From Rhizophagus irregularis (lineage: Eukaryota; Glomeromycota; Glomeromycetes; Glomerales; Glomeraceae): a stretch of 64,000 nucleotides of DNA. Both the position numbers and the translations under genes were made by a program. The stretch spans positions 728,001 through 792,000 of the forward strand of contig NC_089451.1 of the NCBI RefSeq assembly GCF_026210795.1, given 5' to 3'. Numbering within the stretch: the stretch's first letter is position 1; every line of letters begins with the position of its first letter. Positions 38,505 through 57,975 of this stretch are shown piece by piece. Below the pieces are notes generated by a model. The model was not told the DNA's origin, did no database searches, and worked only from the letters and a program-made list of their open reading frames with translations.

Positions 38505-40390
38505 TTAGATTTGAATAATCTTATTAATTTTTATTTTAATTAATAATACTGTAAATAATCTTATTAATTATTATTTTAATTAATAATACTTTGAATAATC
38601 TTATTAATTTTTATTTTAATTAATAATACTTTGAATAATCTTATTAATTTTTATTTTAATATTCAATTTTATTCCCATCTTGAAATTTGGTCAAGAAAAA
38701 AGCAAGGCATATTTATACCTTTTGCTATTATTTTATTATAATTTTATTATATTATCAAGCTGGGAAAAGTATTAGATTTGAATAATCTTATTAATTTTTA
38801 TTTTAATATTCAATTTTATTCCCATCTTGAAATTTGGTCAAGAAAAAAGCAAGGCATATTTATACCTTTTGCTATTATTTTATTATAATTTTATTTAATT
38901 ATAATATTATTATTTTATTATATTATCGAGCTGGGAAAAGTATTAGATTTGAATAATCTTATTAATTTTTATTTTAATATTCAATTTTATTCCCATCTTG
39001 AAATTTGGTCAAGAAAAAAGCAAGGCATATTTATACCTTTTGCTATTATTTTATTATAATTTTATTTAATTATAATATTATTATTTCATTAATATTATCG
39101 AGCTGGAGAAAGTATTAGATTTGAATAATCTTATTAATTTTTATTTTAATATTCAATTTTATTCCCATCTTGAAATTTGATCAAGAAAAAAGCAAGGCAT
39201 ATTTATACCTTTTGCTATTATTTTATTATAATTTTATTTAATTATAATATTATTATTTTATTATATTATCGAGCTGGGGAGAGTATTAGATTTGAATAAT
39301 CTTATTAATTTTTATTTTAATATTCAATTTTATTCCCATCTTCCCCATCTTGAAATTTGATCAAGAAAAAAGCAAGGCATATTTATACCTTTTGCTATTA
39401 TTTTATTATAATTTTTATTTAATTATAATTTTATCATTTTATTATATTATCGAGCTGGAGGAGAGTTAAACAAAGTATTAATTTTTATTTAATATTCAAT
39501 TTTATCCCCCATCTCGAAATTTGGTCAAGAAAAAAGGAAGGCATATTTATACCTTTTACTATTATTTCATTATATTATCGAGCTGGAAAAAGTATTAGAT
39601 TTGAATAATCTTATTAATTTTTATTTTAATATTCAATTTTATTCCCATCTTGAAATTTGGTCAAGAAAAAAGAAAGACATATTTATACCTTTTGCTATTA
39701 TTTTATTATAATTTTATTTAATTATAATATTATTATTTCATTATATTATCGAGCTGAGGAAGTATTAGATTTGAATAATCTTATTAATTTTTATTTTAAT
39801 ATTCAATTTTATTCCCATCTTGAAATTTGATCAAGAAAAAAGCAAGGCATATTTATACCTTTTGCTATTATTTTATTATAATTTTATTTAATTATAATAT
39901 TATTATTTTATTATATTATCGAGCTGGGGAGAGTATTAGATTTGAATAATCTTATTAATTTTTATTTTAATATTCAATTTTATTCCCATCTTCATCTTGA
40001 AATTTGATCAAGAAAAAAGCAAGGCATATTTATACCTTTTGCTATTATTTTATTATAATTTTATTTAATTATAATATTATTATTTTATTATATTATCGAG
40101 CTGGGGAGAGTATTAGATTTGAATAATCTTATTAATTTTTATTTAAATATTCAATTTTATCTCCATCTCGAAATTTGGTCAAGAAAAAAGCAAGGCATAT
40201 TTATACCTTTTGCTATTATTTTATTATAATTTTTATTTAATTATAATTTTATCATTTTATTATATTATCGAGCTGGAGGAGAGTTAAACAAAGTATTAAT
40301 TTTTATTTAATATTCAATTTTATCCCCCATCTCGAAATTTGGTCAAGAAAAAAGGAAGGCATATTTATACCTTTTGCTAAGCTACTCATC
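38505..40390. repeat. Satellite-like tandem array, ~172-bp monomer
   Basis: About ten units. ATTAGATTTGAATAATC recurs near 38771, 38942, 39114, 39287, 39595, 39768, 39938 and 40111, giving a period near 172 bp. Each monomer also holds ATTCAATTTTATTCCCATCT, GAAATTTGGTCAAGAAAAAA and TTATACCTTTTGCTATTATT, and ends in TATCGAGCTGG. Two near-identical variant units (at 39470-39560 and 40275-40380, with GGAGAGTTAAACAAAG) show higher-order duplication. The first 200 bases are shorter 60-bp sub-repeats. Confidence 0.9.
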
Positions 40391-46304: not shown

Positions 46305-46444
46305 CAGTCAACTCTCTTTATAGTTACACATTTGGGACAGTCCATATTTGGTGATTATAAAGAGATGTGACTATATAAAAAATTTCTTATATTTGTATAT
46401 CATAATTCCGGCCAAAAATTAACATAATTTTAGTCAGAATTATA

Positions 46445-46890
46445 CTTAAAACTTTATTGTATCGTAACTTCGCCAATATTAATCGTAGAGAGATGATCTT
46501 ACCGCCATTCGATTCGTCTTGATGAGACGGTTCTAATGGTATAAAATACGTCGAAATCCAATCACTAGATTAATTTCCAAAATTAAAAAAATATTAATGG
46601 TTTTTGTGTAATAACTCTGTCAATATTGATCCTAGAAAGACGATCTTACTACTATTCGATTCGTCTTGATGAGACGAATCTAATGGTATAAGATACATCG
46701 AAATCCAATCACTAGATCAATTTCCGAAATTAAAAAATATTAAATGGTTTTTAAGTAATAACTCCGTCAATATTGATCACAGAGAGATGAGCTTACCACC
46801 ATTCGATTCGTCTCGATGAGGCGATTCCAACGAGCTATAAATCGTCTTTTTACAATCACTAGGTACCGAGAAATCTAGCAAAATGTTAAA
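46445..46890. repeat. 147-bp tandem repeat with a CGATTCGTCT hairpin
   Basis: ATTCGATTCG starts at 46507, 46654 and 46801, exactly 147 bp apart. Each unit includes a GATTCGTCT-(5 bases)-AGACGAATC-like stem, best preserved in the second unit, and AATCACTAG downstream. A fourth, interrupted unit continues at 48137. Related single copies lie at 8400-8680 and 37885-37985. Confidence 0.8.
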
Positions 46891-46985
46891 TGGCGCAGTA
46901 AACGTGAATCAAGAAATATTATAATGCCGATGTTTAACATTTTGTTGAATAACTCGTTAGCCAGTGATCAGAAAAGGATAAAACT

Positions 46986-47122
46986 GGATATCTTCTATAG
47001 TGGTGCTGTTACCTGAGGAATTAAGTACTCGGTTTAATGGTTGCCCATTGAAGATGATAGGACACAGACCCGAGATTAGTCTCATAAGAAGCAATGGGTG
47101 GTCTGGCCGTAAACATTTGCAA
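46986..47122 (+). mobile_element. 5'-truncated retroposon copy
   Basis: 137 bp nearly identical to the last 138 bp of the retroposon at 47143-48116 (ATRTCTTCTATAGTGG through ACATTTGCAA). It is flanked by 16-bp direct repeats AGAAAAGGATAAAACT at 46970-46985 and 47123-47138. A 3'-end-only copy with long target duplications is the usual product of target-primed reverse transcription. Confidence 0.7.
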
Positions 47123-47142
47123 AGAAAAGGATAAAACTACCA

Positions 47143-48116
47143 AGGGTTGGTCACCCTATCTCGGTGGTTAGTCACTGAGACCCTCATTAAGCCTGAGTAT
47201 GGTGAGGTCGCAGGTTCGATTCCTATGACCACGGAAATAAAAAGAATTTTACTGCGGACGCTACAACCAATAAGCGTACAAGCATACAGGACAAGGTAGT
47301 GGACTGCATCATGGTGAATTAGTGTGTACGGTTAGGCCGCACATTTCAACTAAGGGTCATGGTGTCCTTCTAACGTTCCCTATGAGGCCATTGGCATGTG
47401 CGCAGTCCTGTCCTTTGAGGTCACTACTATACCGGGACTTTCTGTCGAGGGTCACTTTCTACGATACCGCTTGGGGTCAGTAATGGCTAGATGGTCGTCC
47501 TAGATGGTAAAGCTGAGGGTGCAATGTCTTAGTGGTAGTTAGACCTTCTGTTAGGTCTTAGACCAACCAAGGTGTTCGTGCACAGAACAGGTAGTAGTGG
47601 CTATGGGGTTCGATTCCCTACTCCTTGGGTCCCGGTTGGTGATCCCTGGTGGTTGATACCCACCATAAGGGGTGATCCTGGACAGATGCCTGCTACTTCC
47701 TGTCCGAGTGGTCACTACAAAAGTATACCACTTGGGGTAAACAACTGTACTATCGGTGCTAGGTAATCGCGGGCTGTAGTGGCCTTTGAGTGAGACTTAA
47801 GACAAAATGGTGGTATGGAAGGGTACTAGATGGTTGATGTTACCTGTCGAAAGTCCTCCATGAAAGTAGATGCTCTCTAAAGGTCGTTAAATAAATTGAG
47901 TATCAGTATCATGCAATGGGTATAGGATGAGTAGGCGGCGTGTACCTAGCTTCAGATCAGCCTAAATGGCCCGATGGGGGATGTCTTCTATAGTGGTGCT
48001 GTTACCTGAGGAATTAAGTACTCGGTTTAATGGTTGCTCATTGAAGATGATAGGACACAGACCCGAGATTAGTCTCATAAGAGGCAATGGGTGGTCTGGC
48101 CGTAAACATTTGCAAA
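47143..48116 (+). mobile_element. tRNA-headed retroposon (SINE-like, ~974 bp), copy 1
   Basis: The GC content is clearly higher than in surrounding DNA. Near the 5' end is a tRNA-like promoter: A-box-like TATCTCGGTGGTTAG (47155-47170 region) and a perfect B box GGTTCGATTCC (47213-47223). A second tRNA-like pair follows at TCTTAGTGGTAG (47527) and GGTTCGATTCC (47607-47617). The element is flanked by a 20-bp direct repeat, AGAAAAGGATAAAACTACCA, at 47123-47142 and 48117-48136. No reverse transcriptase or long reading frame is present. It aligns over most of its length with the minus-strand copy at 52935-57960. Length well beyond typical SINEs, so the class is provisional. Confidence 0.7.
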
Positions 48117-48412
48117 AGAAAAGGATAAAACTACCACCATTCGATTCGTCTCAGTGAGACGATTCTAACAAGCTATGATACATCTTTGTACGATTATTAG
48201 ATGCCAAGTTATTTAATATATTCTTTATATAACTGTGATTATAAACGGTTCTTTTTAATATAAGATTTTTGAGGATAGGTGTGATAGTGACTATAGATAG
48301 ATTGTGACTATATAGGATAGATTTTAATAATAAAGTGTTTTGAACATTCAACTGGTGTGACTATATAGTAGAATGTGACTATAACGGGAGTGACTATAGA
48401 GGGAGTTGACTG

Positions 48413-51400
48413 TATAAGTAATTTATATATAATTACTATAATGCAATTATCTTGACTTCTAGTGATTCAATTTCAATATACTTTTTTTTTAATTTATAGC
48501 TCTTGTTTAGTTTTACAAATTTAGCATTATAAAACAAAAAAAAATTTGTTCAAATTGAATCGCTAAAAGCTAAAATAATTGTATTTATATTATAATAATT
48601 ATTATAATGCGATTATCTTGACTTTTAGTGATCCAATTTTAATAAACTTTTTTTTTAATTTATAGTTCTCATTTAGTTTTAAAAATCTAGCTTTACAAAA
48701 TAAAAAAAAAGTTTATTCAAATTGAATCACTAGAAGCCAAAATAATTATATAATACTAATTATTATATAATATTTAATATTTAATAATAATAATTTTTTT
48801 AGCCAATTAGATTTCAATCAGATGGAAGTGAAAGGTTAAGGCTACTAATTAAGAGAAATCAGCTGATTTCTAACATATCCTTTAATATAAGATTTATTAT
48901 TGATGTTTAGTTAAATATTTACTGGTAAAAATACTAAAATTAGAGATTTAAATAATGCAGTTTTTTAAATTTGATTAGAATATTTTATATATTTCAATTT
49001 ATTATTTTTTATATAGATGATTGATAAAAGACATCTGCAATAATATATAAAGTTAAAAATAAAGAAATCAATCAACTTTACATAATAAGATACTTACAAG
49101 ATTTTATTAATATTGATTATATAAGAAAATATTAGATCAGTTATTCTTTAATCAATTAATAACTTGTGTTTGAAATTCTTAAAAATTTCTTGAAATATTA
49201 TAGCCATTTGCCAACCACTATAGGTAAAAAAATAAAAATTAATAAATATTCACTATATATGATGAAGTTAAAATATTTTAATGCATACATTATGATCTAA
49301 ATTGTTATAAAATTTTATTTTATTAATAACAGATCCCTACTTATTTATAATAAAGGTCACTGTAACTCTAAGGTAAAATTACTAAGAAAAAAATTTTGAT
49401 GATCCTTAAATAGATAAATTATATCTAAAAAAGGAAATATTACACTGCATTATTATAATTTTTTTCCTTTTAAATCAATTAACTAATAATATTAAAAATC
49501 GGAGTAAGGTAAAATTACTAGTTTAAAATTTTTCCTAGAGACCTTTATTAGAAGTAAGCAGGATTCTTTAATAACGTATTTTCACAAAAATATCATCTTT
49601 TACTGTATACTAAATATTAATTGATTGATTTTTACAAACTTATCTAATTGTAATTGATTATTTGAAAAAACTATTTACCCTTTTCTTCACTTTTTTTGTA
49701 AATTCAGATTCATTACAGATAGTTTGTTTAATATCAATAATTATATTATTTACATCATTGGAGTTGAAAATAGTGGGATTACTAGTTGATTGGCTAGTAT
49801 TAATAACAATTTTCTTATTTGATTTATTTGTTTAATATTCTTGCTTTTGGTACTTTTTATTAACTTATACTTCTGGATTTTTTGATATCTTTAACAACAT
49901 TAGGAGAACTTTAAAAAAAAGTATTTATCTCATATATAAAGTCAGTATTACAATACAGATTAAAAATAAGTTTATGTATATCATATAATAAACAAAATAA
50001 AAAAAACATTATTGGAGAGATTTCAATTGATGTATTTTTAACTTTGATTAATTCTTTATTATAATTGAAGGTTAAGAAGAAGTATAATAACAGGAGAGAA
50101 CTTTTTAACTGATTGTTTTTTGTATTTTCTACTCTGTTATTAATTATAAATAATATATTAATAAAGTAAACAAATGTTTAATTATTAATAGTATTTTATA
50201 CCAATGTATCATTAACATTTTCAATAGTAAAATAAATGATTCTAATTATTATTGCAAAGGTTTTTGTAAAGATACTTATAAATAAACTAGTAAATAAATT
50301 AATACAAGAAAACTATAACTTTTGCAGTTTGTAATTGATTCTATAGTAAAAATTGGAATTTAACTGAAAGACAAGTTAAAAATTATTCAAAAAAAGTTGG
50401 ATTTAAAATTGTAAGACATTATATTAATAAGAATAAATATAATAAAATTAAATATCATATATTCGAGTGCTAAAATTTACATAAATATTGTGCTAAAAAA
50501 AAGCTAATGTAAAAGTAAAAGTATGAAGATAGGCTGTTTATAAAAGTTAATCTTAATTATAATAAAAGTATTATATGAGTTACTTCTATATGCAAAGAAT
50601 ACAATTATTTATAGAAATACTATATAGTATCAAATCATTATTTCAGTTAGAAATGCTAGAAATAATTGAGTTTTTAGTTGTAAATAGAGTAGATCTGATT
50701 ATTTGTTTGCTTCAAAAATGGTTTTTTGATGTAATAATCCATCCAAAAAGTGTATATAATATAATTTGTTTTTTTCAGTATAGTAAAAGTAATGAAAACT
50801 GATACTACTGAAATATATAAAAATAAAAATGCAACATAAGGAATATAGTTGATTTGTTGAAGTAAAATTAGAGAATAATGTTAATTATCTTACTGGTTTT
50901 TTTTTTGAATGAGGTCATCACAAATTGAATTATAATAAAAATTTTATAATATTACAATAAATAATAATATATTATAAATAAATAAATATCAAATGTACTT
51001 GTTCCTTACAATTGTTATTGATAATTATGTATAATTTCAGATAGTTGCTATGGCTGTAATTTCAGATGAAATTAAAGAAACTTATCAGTGAATTCTGAAG
51101 TATTTTTTATATATCACAAATGATTTTATAAGTATCTTATATTAAGAGTGCTTTTTATAAATGCTGATGTTAGCAGTATAATTACTATTATTTATGAGAC
51201 TCTTTCATTGACAAAATATAATTAATATTGCATTTGACATTTACAGAAATCTTGAAAAGAATTTGAAAGAGAAACTTCATAAATACAATAATTTTATAAA
51301 CATATTTGCTGATTCATAGAATTTGCCAATCATCAGTTATGTGATGCAGTACTGATTAAAATCAATCAAAACCGTTCCTATGTAAGAAAAAATGTCAAAA

Positions 51401-52919
51401 AATATATAAAAAAAACTTTTAAGACCTTTCACAAAATATTTACCTCTTTAACCTAAAACCAGTAAAAGGAATTTCTAGAAAAAAAAGGAAAAAATATTAT
51501 AAAGTTAGTTTATTAAAAAAAAAAGAAAAACTTTACAAAATCCAGAATATTTAATGATTTAATGAAAAAAAATTAACTGAAAAATAATTAATAATAAATA
51601 ATATTAAATAGATTTTAATTAAACAACTAATCAATACATAGTTATTTATTTATTGAAAGATTTTTTTTGAATAATTTTGCTTTCTAAATAAATTTTTTCT
51701 ATAAACTATAAAAAAAAAATAAAAAAACAGCTTCAAGTTGTATCTAATATAAAATAATTACTAATATACTTGCAAAAATTCTCAATTTACTTGATATAAA
51801 AATTGGTTGAAAAGTTGATGGGGGAGTTGATGAAAAGTTTAATAGGGAGTTTACAAAAGAAAAAAATTTTTTAACGCTGCTTTTTGTTAAAGTAATTTTT
51901 TGATATCTGTTATATGATCATGTAGCACAAGTGTGATCATTTTTGCAAAACTTAATTTACCTAATTTTTATTAAATTATTGTCAAATTCCTTAATTTAAA
52001 CGAATTTTATTAATTCTGCAGATCAGCGAATATAAAAACTGAAATAAATTTTAAAACAATTTCTTTGAAAAAAAACTATTTTGAAGCACAGAAATATCTT
52101 AAATATATACTGGAAATTGATATGACTAGTTGGATTTTATATTTCATATATTAATTATTTAATACAGATATTCAATTAACATAATATATCAAAAGTTACT
52201 TATTAGGAATTTTATAATAATATATGAACTAGATATATATACAAATTCAATTATAGTTTGATAAGAAAAAAAAATTTGAGCAATTAGAAAAGCAAGTAAA
52301 TTAAAATCTCACAATAGATTTATCTAATATTATCAAAAAATATCTTATACTGTAAGTTTTAAGAATTCAATGTTATCAAATAAATAAAAGCTTATTTTAT
52401 CATATAAAAAAAATTGAGAATTGTAAATATTTGTTTAAACATAAGGTATAAGTTGCAAAATTAATTTATTATTAAATTTTTGGATATATGAGTTATCAAG
52501 TTTATACAATATATTTTAATTTAAAAATTTAAATGGATTTTTAAGCTTACTTTGAATTATGATATTTTATTAAAATAAGATTTTTTTATTTAAGCTTATG
52601 ATTTTAATAAAAAAATAAATGGTATAACTAGCCAAAATAAAAATAAGAATATAATGAAAAACAGAAATAATTCAATAGTAAAGAATAAGAATGACATAAA
52701 GAAAAACAGAACTAATTTGATAATAAATATGTATGATCTAATAATAAATAAAAATAATCTGATGATAAATGAAAATAACTTGATGGAAAAAAAATGTGAA
52801 CAATCTGATGAAGAAGAATAAAAATAATCTGATGAAAAAGAATAGAGACAATATAATGATAATGAATAGAAATGATCTAATAAAAAAGAATAAAAATGAT
52901 CTAATAAAAAAAAACAGGA
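48413..52919. other. AT-rich DNA with two small palindromic repeats
   Basis: At 48446-48590 and 48602-48750 are two tandem copies of a palindrome pairing TAGTGATTCAATTT with AAATTGAATCRCTA. From about 48800 to 52600 nothing is recognisable. From 52610 to 52919 there is an imperfect repeat of AATAAAAATRATCTGATGA-like words that resumes at 57976-58190, on the other side of the retroposon. Confidence 0.4.
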
Positions 52920-54539
52920 ATGATATAATAATAATTTTTTTTTTTTTTTATGTTTTAGAAGACATCAGCATAGCAGGTTCACCAGAGCTACATAGAGGGA
53001 GCACTACAACTAGAAGTTGCGGAAATGCACTCCTACCGTTGAGTGACAGTTAACCAAGCACCTACTCTAATTATTTAGAAGTAACCGGATGTACATCTCC
53101 CTACCCCCTATATACTACACTGGGAAGACGACCCAAGTTTATACCCACACAAGGATGGATCGTAGTGTAGCAGGGTTTCTGACATAGTTATACTACCCAT
53201 TAGCACCCGTCGAAGTGAGCAACCACCCACGTATGGCAGATATAACGGAGCAGACATCTAGAAGTCCTTTCATGATGGTTAGCTTAGAGGAACTGCAATA
53301 CTAAGACTACTAATATGGCCTCACTCAAAGCCCACTACAGGCCGCAATTACCATACCAGCCCACCACAGTTGTAAATCCCCCAGTAGTAATAGCAGTGAC
53401 TACCGGGACAGTAAGCTGCTAAGGGTACTGGGATCATTCCTTTATTATAAGTAACCAATCCCAGCTTACCTAGCGGAGCACCCACCAGTACGTCAAATTC
53501 ACTGAGGAATCGAACCTCACCTTAGAACCTTATATACCTGTGAGCCTACGAACGTCTCCAATCAGCCTAAACCTATTAGAAGGTAAACTACTGCTAAGAC
53601 ATTGCACTTGAGACTTTACCATCTATGAAGACCATCTAGCGTAAGAAATCCCCACAGTAAAGTTTACCACACCCTTAGTGGTATCGTAGAGTGACCACCA
53701 AGACAAGAGCTCACCCAGATGGTATGCAAGCAGTGACCATCCAGACAGGACAATAGGCTTCCCAATGGCCTCATAAGGAATGCTAGGAGGACACCATGAC
53801 CCTTTGTTGAAATATACTGCCGACCAGTACATACTAATTCACCATGATGCAGTCCAACACTGGTCGAAATAGTCCAAATCGGCTAGAAATTGGATGTCCG
53901 ATTTTAGGCTGAATTTGGTGATAAATATGGCCGATTTATTAATTTAGGCAAAGTTCTGATTGGCAGGCCGATCGATGCCGATCAGAATGTCTGAATTGTA
54001 TCTGAATTGCTTAGTATTTTTAATCCGAATTGTTTAAAAAATATTATTCATAAATTTACCGAATTGCAGTGAATTTATTCTGAATTATGGTAAATTTGTG
54101 ACAAAATTTTCTGAATTGTAGTAAAATTTATTCCAAATTGTAGTAAAATTTATTCCGATTTGTAGTAAAATTTATTCCAATTTGTAGTAAAATTTATTCT
54201 GATTTGTAGTAAAATTTATTCCGAATTGTAATAAAATTTATTCCGATTTGTAGTAAAATTTATTCTGATTTGTAGTAAAATTTATTCCGATTTGTAGTAA
54301 AAAATTTATTCTGATTTGTATTCTGAATTGTATCGCAAATTACAGTAAATTTTATTCTGAAATTTAAAATATTACATATACATATAAAACAATTTCACCA
54401 AAAATCATCCCAACTTTCTAACAAATCCGGTATACGTTAAATTCCTTAATTCCCATTTGTTTCTACAAATTGGAGATGATTTTCCTACAAAAAAAAAAAG
54501 AAAAAACATTAAAATAACGTTTTTTTTTAAGTTTCAAGT

Positions 54540-56460
54540 TTCAAAAATCAAAACGTTACCTGTAGGATGGCAAATCGAAGCCAATTTCCATACAAAAAAA
54601 TTAATAAAATATAATAAAAAATGTTAAATTAAACATTTTTATTAAGTTTCGTCAAAAAGTTTCGAAAAATCGAAACTTTACCTGCGGGATTCCGGTACAA
54701 TTTGGAGCTGATTTCCTGCAAAAAAAATAATAAAAAATAATAAAAAAAACGTTAAATTAAACGTTTTTTTATTAATTTGCGTCAAAAAGTTTCGACGAAA
54801 CTTTACCTGCGGGATTCTGGTACAATTTGGAGCCGATTTCCCTGCAAAAAAAATAATAAAATCTAATAAAAAAACGTTAATTTAAACGTTTTTTTATTAA
54901 GTTTCATAAAGTTTCGAAGTTTCATAAAGTTTCGAAACTTCGAAACTTTACTTGCGGGATTCCGGTATCCAATTTGGAGCCGATTTCCTGCAAAAAAAAA
55001 TAATAAAAAATAATAAAAAAAATGTTAAATTAAACGTTTTTTTTATTAATTTGTGTCAAAAAGTTTTGAAAATCGAAACTACTTGCAGGATTCCGATATC
55101 CAATTTGGAGCTGATTTCCTGCAAAAAAAATTAATAAAAATAATAAAAAAACGTTAAATTTAAACATTTTTTTATTAAGTTTCGTAAAGTTTCGAAACTT
55201 TGAAACTTTACTTGCGGGATTCCGGTATCCAATTTGGAGCCGATTTCCTGCAAAAAAAAAATAATAAAAATAATAAAAAAACGTTAATTTAAACGTTTTT
55301 TTATTAATTTGCGTCAAAAAGTTTTGAAAATCGAAACTACTTGCAGGATTCCGATATCCAATTTGGAGCTGATTTCCTGCAAAAAAAATTAATAAAAATA
55401 ATAAAAAAACGTTAAATTTAAACGTTTTTTTATTAATTTTTTTCAAAAAGTTTCGAAAAATCGAAACTTTGCATGTGGGATTCCGGTATCCATATTGGAG
55501 CCGTTTATTTATAAAAATATTAATAAAATATAATAAAAAACGTTATATTAAACATTTTTTATTAATTTTTTTCAAAAAGTTTCAAAAAATCGAAACTTTG
55601 CATGTGCAATTCCGGTATCCATATTGGAGCCGATTTCCCTGCAAAAATATTAATAAAATATAATAAAAAACGTTATATTAAACGTTTTTTATTAATTTTT
55701 TTCAAAAAGTTTCGAAAAATCGAAACTTTGCATGTGGGATTCTGGTATCCATATTGGAGCCGATTTCCCTGCAAAAAAAAATAATAAAATATAATAAAAA
55801 ACGTTATATTAAACGTTTTTTATTAATTTTTTTCAAAAAGATTCGAAAAATCGAAACTTTACCTGCGGGATTCTGGTATCCATATTGGAGCCGATTTCCC
55901 TGCAAAAAAAAATAATAAAATATAATAAAAAACGTTAAATTAAACGTTTTTTATTAATTTTTGTCAAAAAGTTTCGAAAATTCGAAACTTTACGGTATTC
56001 CTACAATAATATTAAAAAAAAAAACGTTAAACGTTTTTTTCAAAGAAGTTTCGAAAATGCGAAACTTATCTGGAATATCGGCGTCCACGTTGGAGCCGAT
56101 TTCCTATACAAAAGTAAAAAAAACGTTTTTAGTAATATTAAAAAACGTTTTTTAAAGTTTCAAAACTTTTGTTTCGAAACTTACCTTTGGAAATCAGTAT
56201 CCAAGTAGGAGCTGATTTCCTATATAAAAGTATAAAAAAAAATGTTAGAAAACGTTTTTTAAAGTAATAGTTTTGCAAAAAAAAATTAATAAAATCAGAA
56301 CGTTAACTAATGTTCCGATTGAAAATATTAAATGAAAAGTTAAAAAACGTTTCGTAAAAAATAAAAATGTTAAAAATTGGAACATTATTTCCGATAAAAA
56401 ATTAAAAAAAAATCCCAAAACGTTTAAAACCGTTTTGTTTAGGAATGAAGTTAGATGAAG
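54540..56460. repeat. Minisatellite of ~115-145 bp with paired hairpins
   Basis: About fourteen units, each holding TTTCGAAAAATCGAAACTTT, GGATTCCGGTATCC, TTGGAGCCGATTTCC and AAACGTTAAATTAAACGTTT. The first and last are self-complementary. The middle units are the most alike; outer units diverge progressively. Frames spanning several units are artefacts. Confidence 0.85.
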
Positions 56461-56639
56461 ATAAAGTTTCGAAACTTTAGTTTAAATAAAGTCTAAATTC
56501 GGTAATAGATCAATTAATTGCCAGATTAATTTTACTGTGGCTGCGGCTTAGTACATCATAAGTTGATTTTGAAAAATCGTTTATTCGAATAACTTCTGAA
56601 ATTGAGACAATTTTTCCATGCCCAAAAGTTTTGATTTCG

Positions 56640-57720
56640 ACCAGTGCAATTTGATATAAAAGTGCCATAAATCAGACAATATTAGGCAAATTTTAAGCTG
56701 TTAATCAAATATGATAATTTTTTGCTAAATTTTTATTGAATTTTTATTGAATTGTTAATTTTCCATAAATCTGAAGTACATATTTGAATATTGTAAATTT
56801 TAGGTTGATTTACAAATTTGTCAGATTTTTTTTTGATATCAATCAGCCATCAATCAAATATAATGATTTTTTAATAAATTTTTGTTGGATTTTTATTGAA
56901 TTTTTATTGAATTGTCAATTTTCCATAAATCTGAAGTACATATTTGAATATTGGGTAAATTTTAGGTTGATTTGCCATTTTGTCAGATTTTTTTTTTAAT
57001 TTCAACGGTACATCAATCAGCCGTCAATCAAATATAATGATTTTTTGCTGAATTTTTATTGAATTTTTATTGAATATTTATTGAATTGTCAATTTTCCAT
57101 AAATCTGAAGTACATATTTGAATATTGGGCAAATTTTAGGTTGATTTGCTATTTTGTCCATTTTTTTTTTTAATTTCAACCAGCATCAATCAGCCGTCAA
57201 TCAAATATACACTGGTAAAAAAATGATTTATCCTACACATATCTTACACATATTGGGTACTTAAAATGTAGAAAATCATCTATGAAATAATACACATATA
57301 AATGCAATATCGGTACTAATATATATATAAATACATATATCAGTACTGATAGGTATACTATATATATAAGTATTCGATATGTGTATTTATATGTGTATTA
57401 TTTGTGTATGATTTTCTACATTTTGAGTACCCGATATATGTAAGATATGTGTAGGATATGTGTAGGATAGACCATTTTTTTACCAGTGATAATGATTTTT
57501 TGCTGAATTTTTATTGAATTTTTATTGAATATTTATTGAATTGTCAATTTTCCATAAATCGGAAGTGCATATTTGAATATTGGGCAAATTTTAGGTTGAT
57601 TTGCTATTTTGTCCATTTTTTTTTTAATTTCGCCAAATCAATCGTCAGTCCGTCAATCAAATATAATGATTTTTTGCTGAATTTTTATCAAATTGTCTGA
57701 TTGGCATCAATCAGATGTGC
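56640..57720. repeat. ~160-180-bp subterminal tandem repeat of the CACTA derivative
   Basis: TTTCCATAAATCTGAAGTAC recurs at about 56760, 56920, 57096 and 57549, along with AATATAATGATTTTTTGCTG and AGGTTGATTTGC. The third interval is lengthened by the MITE at 57210-57488. Confidence 0.8.
57210..57488. mobile_element. 279-bp hairpin MITE with 3-bp target duplication
   Basis: CACTGGTAAAAAAATG and its inverse TTTTTTTACCAGTG bound a near-complete fold-back of over 100 bp per arm (arms share AAAATGTAGAAAATCAT and ATAATACACATATAAAT). ATA is repeated at both sides. The uninterrupted sibling repeat reads AATATAATGATTTTTT, which confirms insertion and the duplication. Termini suggest mobilisation by CACTA-type machinery. 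Confidence 0.85.
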
Positions 57721-57975
57721 CGATTTATAATGTTAGTCAATTTTGGTCTGATTTTTGGCCGATTTTCCATATGTCCGATTTTTTTGATTTCGACCAGTGC
57801 AACCTACACTAATCCCTGTACCTTCACACTATTGGTAGTAGTGTCTGCAGTAAAATTCTTTTAATTTCTGTGATCAGCGAAATCGAACCTGCGACCTCAC
57901 CATACTCAGGCTTCACGAGGGGACTCACAGACTAACCAATGAGCCAAGGGTGATCAACCCATGATATAATAATAA

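What the first reader, a model, noticed from the sequence alone, without database searches (positions are those of the whole stretch)
47143..57960. A GC-rich, ~1-kb retroposon family with two tRNA-like Pol III promoters
Both copies carry two separate A-box/B-box sets (B boxes at 47213 and 47607 in copy 1), long target duplications and, in copy 2, a poly(A) tail. It has no protein-coding capacity. A dimeric tRNA head on a body this long is unusual for SINEs, and the composition stands out from the AT-rich genome. The 3' parts of the two copies differ after GATGTCTTCTA.
Basis: partly seen in the sequence, partly recalled or inferred. Interest (0 to 1): 0.8.

Follow-up and report, generated by a model that had tools for sequence, protein, structure and literature searches.

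The report
Site-specific SINE inside a DNA transposon
In what appears to be the genome of a root-dwelling soil fungus, a short non-coding jumping element was found only at one exact spot of another mobile element, next to a larger element that probably supplies its copying enzyme.

Summary
Copy 1 is a 974-bp, GC-rich, non-coding retroposon with exact B boxes at 47213 and 47607 and no poly(A). With a 5'-truncated sister it sits at one exact position of a ~961-bp TA-flanked DNA transposon (MITE; here 46305-48412). Genome-wide, 94 of 94 exact SINE 3' ends that I examined are followed by the same core GAAAAGGATAAAACT (81 exact in the bases searched, 13 with 1-3 differences). Unusual variants of the core recur at every junction read of the same site, so it is a target duplication. 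A ~7.8-kb LINE (endonuclease, RT, RNase H) uses the same site and is interleaved with the SINE. In 11 adjacent pairs no unit was its neighbour's closest relative, so arrays grow by repeated insertion. Copy 2 is a sister family (71-84% identical) with poly(A) and scattered sites, here split by a 3.9-kb DNA element. Best reading: a Pol III-type SINE made strictly site-specific by borrowing a site-specific LINE. The partnership and Pol III transcription are inferred. My ten paper searches showed no such SINE, but supplements, Repbase and most subscription papers were out of reach.

The parts
46305..48412 (+). Host MITE (2,108 bp with its inserts; 960-963 bp in 10 of 11 copies without insert), ends CAGTCAACTC, TA on both sides
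   Evidence: TA on both sides in 13 of 13 copies printed; superfamily (Tc1/mariner- or pogo-like) is recalled, not tested
46465..46824 (+). 147-bp internal repeats of the MITE
46970..46985 (+). left copy of the target duplication AGAAAAGGATAAAACT
46986..47123 (+). 5'-truncated SINE unit (unit positions 837-974)
47124..47138 (+). middle copy of the core GAAAAGGATAAAACT, followed by extra ACCA (47139-47142)
47143..48116 (+). full-length site-specific SINE unit (copy 1)
47213..47223 (+). first B box
47607..47617 (+). second B box (no sign that retrotransposed RNAs start from it)
47979..48116 (+). 3' module of the site-specific family, ending TTTGCAAA; no clear match in the poly(A) family or the LINE
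48117..48132 (+). right copy of the target duplication
57800..57960 (-). copy 2 (poly(A) family), 5' part
52935..53857 (-). copy 2, remaining body and 15-A tail
53858..57799 (.). 3,942-bp element with ends CACTGG...CCAGTG that interrupts copy 2, flanked by TTG (read by eye)

Best explanation
Copy 1 belongs to a non-coding SINE family that inserts at one site of a DNA transposon by target-primed reverse transcription, most likely with the enzyme of a LINE that uses the same site. Shown by sequence: the site is GATC/(A or G)GAAAAGGATAAAACT/ACCACC in the MITE; insertions have one orientation; each duplicates 15-16 bp of that MITE copy; many are 5'-truncated; SINE and LINE units pile up in one MITE, because each duplication restores the core. 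Inferred: Pol III transcribes the unit from the first head and may read on into the MITE; the LINE endonuclease nicks the bottom strand after GATC; the RNA is placed by its 3' end (TTGCA-A/C-A, shared with the LINE), perhaps helped by pairing of read-through target sequence with the nicked strand, and is copied. A sister family with a similar body but a poly(A) tail inserts at scattered sites, so the strict aim probably came with the changed 3' end.
For: 94 of 94 exact 3' ends examined (of 269 at up to 3 mismatches) are followed by the core: 81 exact in the bases searched, 13 with 1-3 differences. 64 of 64 SINE and 13 of 13 LINE 3' junctions in fetched loci show it, some with differences. Uncommon variants of the core recur at each junction read of five sites: L005 (3 of 3), L033 (3), L071/L061 (3), L021 (2), C6:2563767/2564755 (2). 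24 of 58 SINE 5' junctions are truncated. Neighbouring units are never each other's closest relative (0 of 22 rankings). A LINE with endonuclease, RT and RNase H uses the same site. All reversed-pattern controls gave 0.
Against: No RNA data; Pol III transcription untested, and no tRNA is recognised. LINE and SINE share only about 7 terminal letters, no longer tail. No LINE read here carries the SINE's 3' module. The base before GAAAAGG does not always agree between the two ends of a site (e.g. L010, L017). Units differ from their consensus by 3.8% on average, while MITE flanks mostly differ by 0-3%, which is odd for insertions younger than their host. The 175 more diverged 3' ends were not examined as a set.
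Confidence: 0.82

Rival explanations
1. Satellite: the ~991-bp repeats multiply inside a locus by unequal exchange or slippage.
For: Units stand head to tail with a regular period. SINE-derived satellites are reported in reptiles (PMC10702118, seen in a search listing only).
Against: 0 of 22 neighbour rankings is first, and neighbours differ more (0.086) than units in general (0.069); truncated SINE units and LINEs are interleaved, each with its own core copy.
Confidence: 0.05
2. Hitch-hiking: SINEs inserted rarely, and the loaded MITE then spread by its transposase.
For: The MITE is high-copy, with at least 40 places identical over 167 bp.
Against: Sites differ in unit number, order, truncation points and core variants. 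I did not test site pairs one by one, so some copies may have spread this way.
Confidence: 0.06
3. The SINE is moved by another LINE (for example one that ends in the SINE's 3' module), and the LINE found merely shares the site.
For: The SINE's 3' module has no counterpart in the LINE. Related LINE copies of 72-87% identity also occur at the site, and the protein search lists R. irregularis relatives at 57-68% identity over nearly the whole query. In one search only 40 of 373 candidates were scored.
Against: The LINE shares site, orientation, duplication length and terminal TTGCA(A/C)A with the SINE; the 3' ends of two diverged LINE copies read (L072, L073) have the same tail type, not the SINE module.
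Confidence: 0.2
4. Retrozyme-like or circular-RNA element that inserts as concatemers.
For: Tandem non-coding units of ~1 kb.
Against: No ribozyme family at Rfam gathering scores in the window, none among sub-threshold hits in 46700-48300; neighbours are unrelated.
Confidence: 0.02

Closest known systems
Tx1L LINE in the Tx1D transposon of Xenopus laevis (recalled; not described in the passages I saw)
   Same: A LINE with strict insertion into one site of a repeat-containing DNA transposon.
   Different: Here a non-coding SINE uses the site as well, in mixed arrays; host is a fungus; this LINE has an RNase H domain.
R2 and R2/R1 SIDEs of Drosophila (PMC3414825, passages)
   Same: Short non-autonomous elements at the exact site of a site-specific LINE; the R2/R1 hybrids have a 14-bp duplication.
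   Different: SIDEs rely on co-transcription with the 28S gene and a ribozyme, and carry LINE 3' ends; their authors therefore do not call them SINEs. Ours has B boxes, a body unlike the LINE and a transposon as target.
Tandem site-specific LINEs such as Utopia in U2 genes (PMC4640811, passages)
   Same: Strict target; one family is occasionally inserted in tandem; the paper lists transposons among known targets.
   Different: Autonomous, other target; no SINE partner in the passages seen.
SINE and LINE families of R. irregularis (PMC11075540, passages)
   Same: The paper reports new SINE and LINE families (CR1-Zenon, L1-Tx1, L1-R1, R2-Hero, RTE-BovB, I) in this species; ours may be among them.
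   Different: The main text holds no 'site-specific', 'nested' or 'MITE' (0 occurrences each); supplements were not available to me.

Membership tests
SINE | short, non-coding, dispersed, flanked by target duplications | tested here: met
   269 3' ends genome-wide
SINE | Pol III promoter (A and B box) | tested here: inconclusive
   exact B boxes, conserved; A boxes judged by eye, weak in copy 1; no tRNA recognised
SINE | Pol III transcript | not testable with these tools
   no RNA data
SINE of the stringent type | 3' tail shared with the partner LINE | tested here: not met
   only TTGCA(A/C)A is shared
SINE of the relaxed type | poly(A) tail | tested here: not met
   copy 1 family has none; copy 2 family has it in 6 of 6 loci fetched
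Site-specific LINE (the partner) | endonuclease, RT and one constant insertion site | tested here: met
   13 of 13 LINE 3' junctions at the core, some with differences
R1 or Tx1 clade LINE | position in an RT tree | not tested
   no named reference set; PDB matches are L1 and R2 proteins in general
SIDE (R2/R1 type) | 5' ribozyme and LINE-derived 3' end | tested here: not met
Retrozyme | hammerhead ribozyme | tested here: not met
   Rfam
MITE (the target) | inverted ends, TA duplication, short | tested here: met
   13 of 13 copies printed; no search for an autonomous partner

The most novel reading that the evidence does not exclude
A SINE lineage changed from poly(A)-type, scattered insertion to strict single-site insertion by replacing its 3' end, and so became the Pol III-type partner of a site-specific LINE. 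Recognition rests on a terminal TTGCAAA plus pairing of read-through target RNA with the nicked MITE strand, not on a shared LINE tail.
Probability: 0.45. Interest if true: 0.8.

Novelty: new variant of a known kind. Interest (0 to 1): 0.62.

Why it matters
How a LINE enzyme picks a SINE RNA, and how insertion sites are chosen, are open questions. Here two related SINE families with different tails show two insertion modes in one genome, which makes the role of the 3' end testable. A short non-coding RNA that enters one defined, reusable site through a site-specific LINE would also be a useful system for studying target-primed reverse transcription. For this fungus, in which two-thirds of transposable elements are said to remain unclassified (PMC11075540, abstract in a search listing), it would explain part of the repeats as one layered system of MITE, LINE and SINE.

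Tried and rejected
Conserved RNA structure: the window unit folds with z -2.38 on the sense strand (1 of 20 shuffles as good) and -1.04 on the antisense (3 of 20); first head -1.12, second head region 0.22, tail -1.42. In 33 aligned units the consensus fold has 6 pairs with two-sided changes; slid versions have 3 to 14, and 20 of 200 shuffles reach 6. Paired positions do vary less than unpaired ones (2.7% against 4.3%), which alone is weak. Not supported.

Growth direction: the 5' unit is the more diverged in 5 of 11 adjacent pairs, so no polarity. The extra ACCA at 47139-47142 hints at growth next to the right flank in this copy only.

LINE clade: not resolved. tRNA origin of the heads: not shown. 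Satellite, hitch-hiking and retrozyme readings: see rivals.

Decay: CpG sites differ from the consensus at 7.7% against 3.5% elsewhere in 34 full units; C>T and G>A are the commonest changes. This may help explain why units look older than their MITE; not tested further.

Literature: ten searches. None of the listings or passages seen describes a strictly site-specific Pol III-type SINE or this site. Papers opened were read only as passages around search terms (one search showed no passage).
Full report
What is there. The window lies in an unnamed 146.7-Mb, 32-contig genome. A LINE of that genome has an ORF2 95% identical to a protein named Rhizophagus irregularis, so I take the host to be that fungus or a close relative. 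At 47143-48116 stands a 974-bp, GC-rich, non-coding unit with two exact B boxes. Just upstream, at 46986-47123, is the last part (837-974) of a second unit.

The site. Both units lie inside a DNA transposon of the MITE type, 46305-48412, with inverted ends CAGTCAACTC and TA on either side. Of 11 copies without insert printed, 10 are 960-963 bp long and one is 623 bp. The family is high-copy: 40 places are identical over 167 bp, the most that one search scored. The unbroken site occurs 246 times at up to 3 mismatches and its right half, filled or not, 463 times at up to 2. Reversed controls gave 0.

Strict specificity. A 25-base pattern from the SINE 3' end, without target letters, occurs 269 times at up to 3 mismatches. 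I examined the 94 exact ones. All 94 are followed by the core GAAAAGGATAAAACT. In 81 its first 13 bases are exact after a gap of 1-6 bases. Seven carry one difference and were seen in other outputs. Six were fetched for this purpose and carry one to three differences. The other 175 ends were not examined as a set. In fetched loci, 64 of 64 distinct SINE 3' junctions and 13 of 13 LINE 3' junctions show the core, some with differences. Of the 64, 30 run into another SINE unit, 25 into the MITE, 4 into the LINE, 1 into element X, and 4 into sequence my script did not recognise. The first search included 68 bp of MITE flank and so favoured this site; the pattern did not.

Real target duplication. 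Uncommon variants of the core recur at each junction that I read of the same site: L005 3 of 3, L033 3 of 3, L071/L061 3 of 3, L021 2 of 2, and C6:2563767/2564755 2 of 2. For the last two sites the left flank was not read. The core thus comes from the target. Against this, the base before GAAAAGG (A or G) does not always agree, for example in L010 and L017, so only 15 bp are sure.

Serial insertion. Arrays mix full and truncated SINE units, LINE ends and another element. The largest one read, on contig C6, holds within one MITE: SINE, X+LINE end, SINE, LINE end, X+LINE end, truncated SINE, LINE end, SINE, SINE. Of 58 distinct SINE 5' junctions, 34 start within 6 nt of the element start and 24 are truncated, three of them at positions 83-84. 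In 11 adjacent pairs of long units no neighbour was the closest relative (0 of 22 rankings), and neighbours differ more (0.086) than units in general (0.069). This speaks against local duplication as the main source.

The LINE. L059 holds a short truncated LINE copy alone in a MITE; L060 holds a longer one followed by two SINE units. L061 with L071 holds a copy of about 7.8 kb, itself behind a truncated LINE in the same MITE; L062 holds most of another. ORF1 has an open frame of 680 codons. ORF2 has an AP-type endonuclease, RT and RNase H and lies in two pieces in L061 and in five pieces in L062. One search scored 40 of 345 candidates for its last 555 bp; at least 8 of the 41 matches lie within about 20 bp of a SINE unit listed or read in L060. 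LINE and SINE share site, orientation, duplication length and terminal TTGCA(C or A)A, but no longer sequence. I infer, but have not shown, that the LINE moves the SINE.

Copy 2. It belongs to a sister family, 84% identical to copy 1 over the first 130 bp and 71-73% over two body stretches. All 6 loci fetched end in poly(A). In 5 of them a script found shared flanks of 14-20 bp, different in each; the window copy's 15-bp duplication was read by eye. The head pattern shared by both families occurs 312 times at up to 3 mismatches. In the window copy 2 is split by a 3,942-bp element with ends CACTGG...CCAGTG.

Promoters. A 31-base stretch including most of the first B box, and the second B box (11 of 11), are identical between the two families. 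Within the site-specific family the second box is no better conserved than average. Neither ARAGORN nor Rfam recognises a tRNA. No 5' junction points to a start at the second box set.

How it probably works. Shown: one staggered site, 15-16 bp duplication, one orientation, frequent 5' truncation, and re-use of the restored core. Inferred: Pol III transcript, bottom-strand nick after GATC, enzyme from the LINE. The consensus has no T run longer than 4, and the first T5 downstream of copy 1 lies in the MITE at 48252-48256, so a transcript may carry target sequence that can pair with the nicked strand. Nothing here tests this.

Known or new. Site-specific LINEs, also in transposons, are known (PMC4640811, passages), and so are short non-Pol III elements at R1/R2 sites (PMC3414825, passages). 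SINEs and several LINE groups are reported from this fungus (PMC11075540, passages). In ten searches I saw no report of a strictly site-specific Pol III-type SINE. I rate it a new variant of a known kind.

Noticed in passing
L070 2188-5405, L069 488-3651, L038 1-1413 (orientation): A third element (X, ~2.7 kb, open frames of 706 and 117 codons in one copy, product unknown) stands directly before LINE 3' ends without a core between them, in three places; its first ~86 bp are 83% like the LINE's 5' start. It may be a LINE derivative or a product of template switching.
   Followed up: partly
window 53858-57799: Element with ends CACTGG...CCAGTG and a TTG on both sides interrupts copy 2; it resembles CACTA/EnSpm elements (recalled) and contains 131-bp and 174-bp repeats.
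   Followed up: no
SINE unit positions 83-84 (L006, L010, L024): Three of 24 truncated SINE units start at 83-84, just behind the first B box; perhaps a stop for reverse transcription at a folded head.
   Followed up: no
arrays in general, e.g. L033, L034: SINE units differ from their consensus by 3.8% on average, up to 15%, while the MITE around them mostly differs by 0-3%. CpG decay explains at most part.
   Followed up: partly
L025, L036, L072, L073: LINE copies of 72-87% identity to the main LINE also sit at the same site, so several LINE subfamilies share the target.
   Followed up: partly
L044: A shorter MITE variant of 623 bp with the same ends; the pattern of the insertion site was not found there.
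   Followed up: no
window 38789-40379: AT-rich tandem array with a ~171-bp unit, about 9.5 copies.
   Followed up: no
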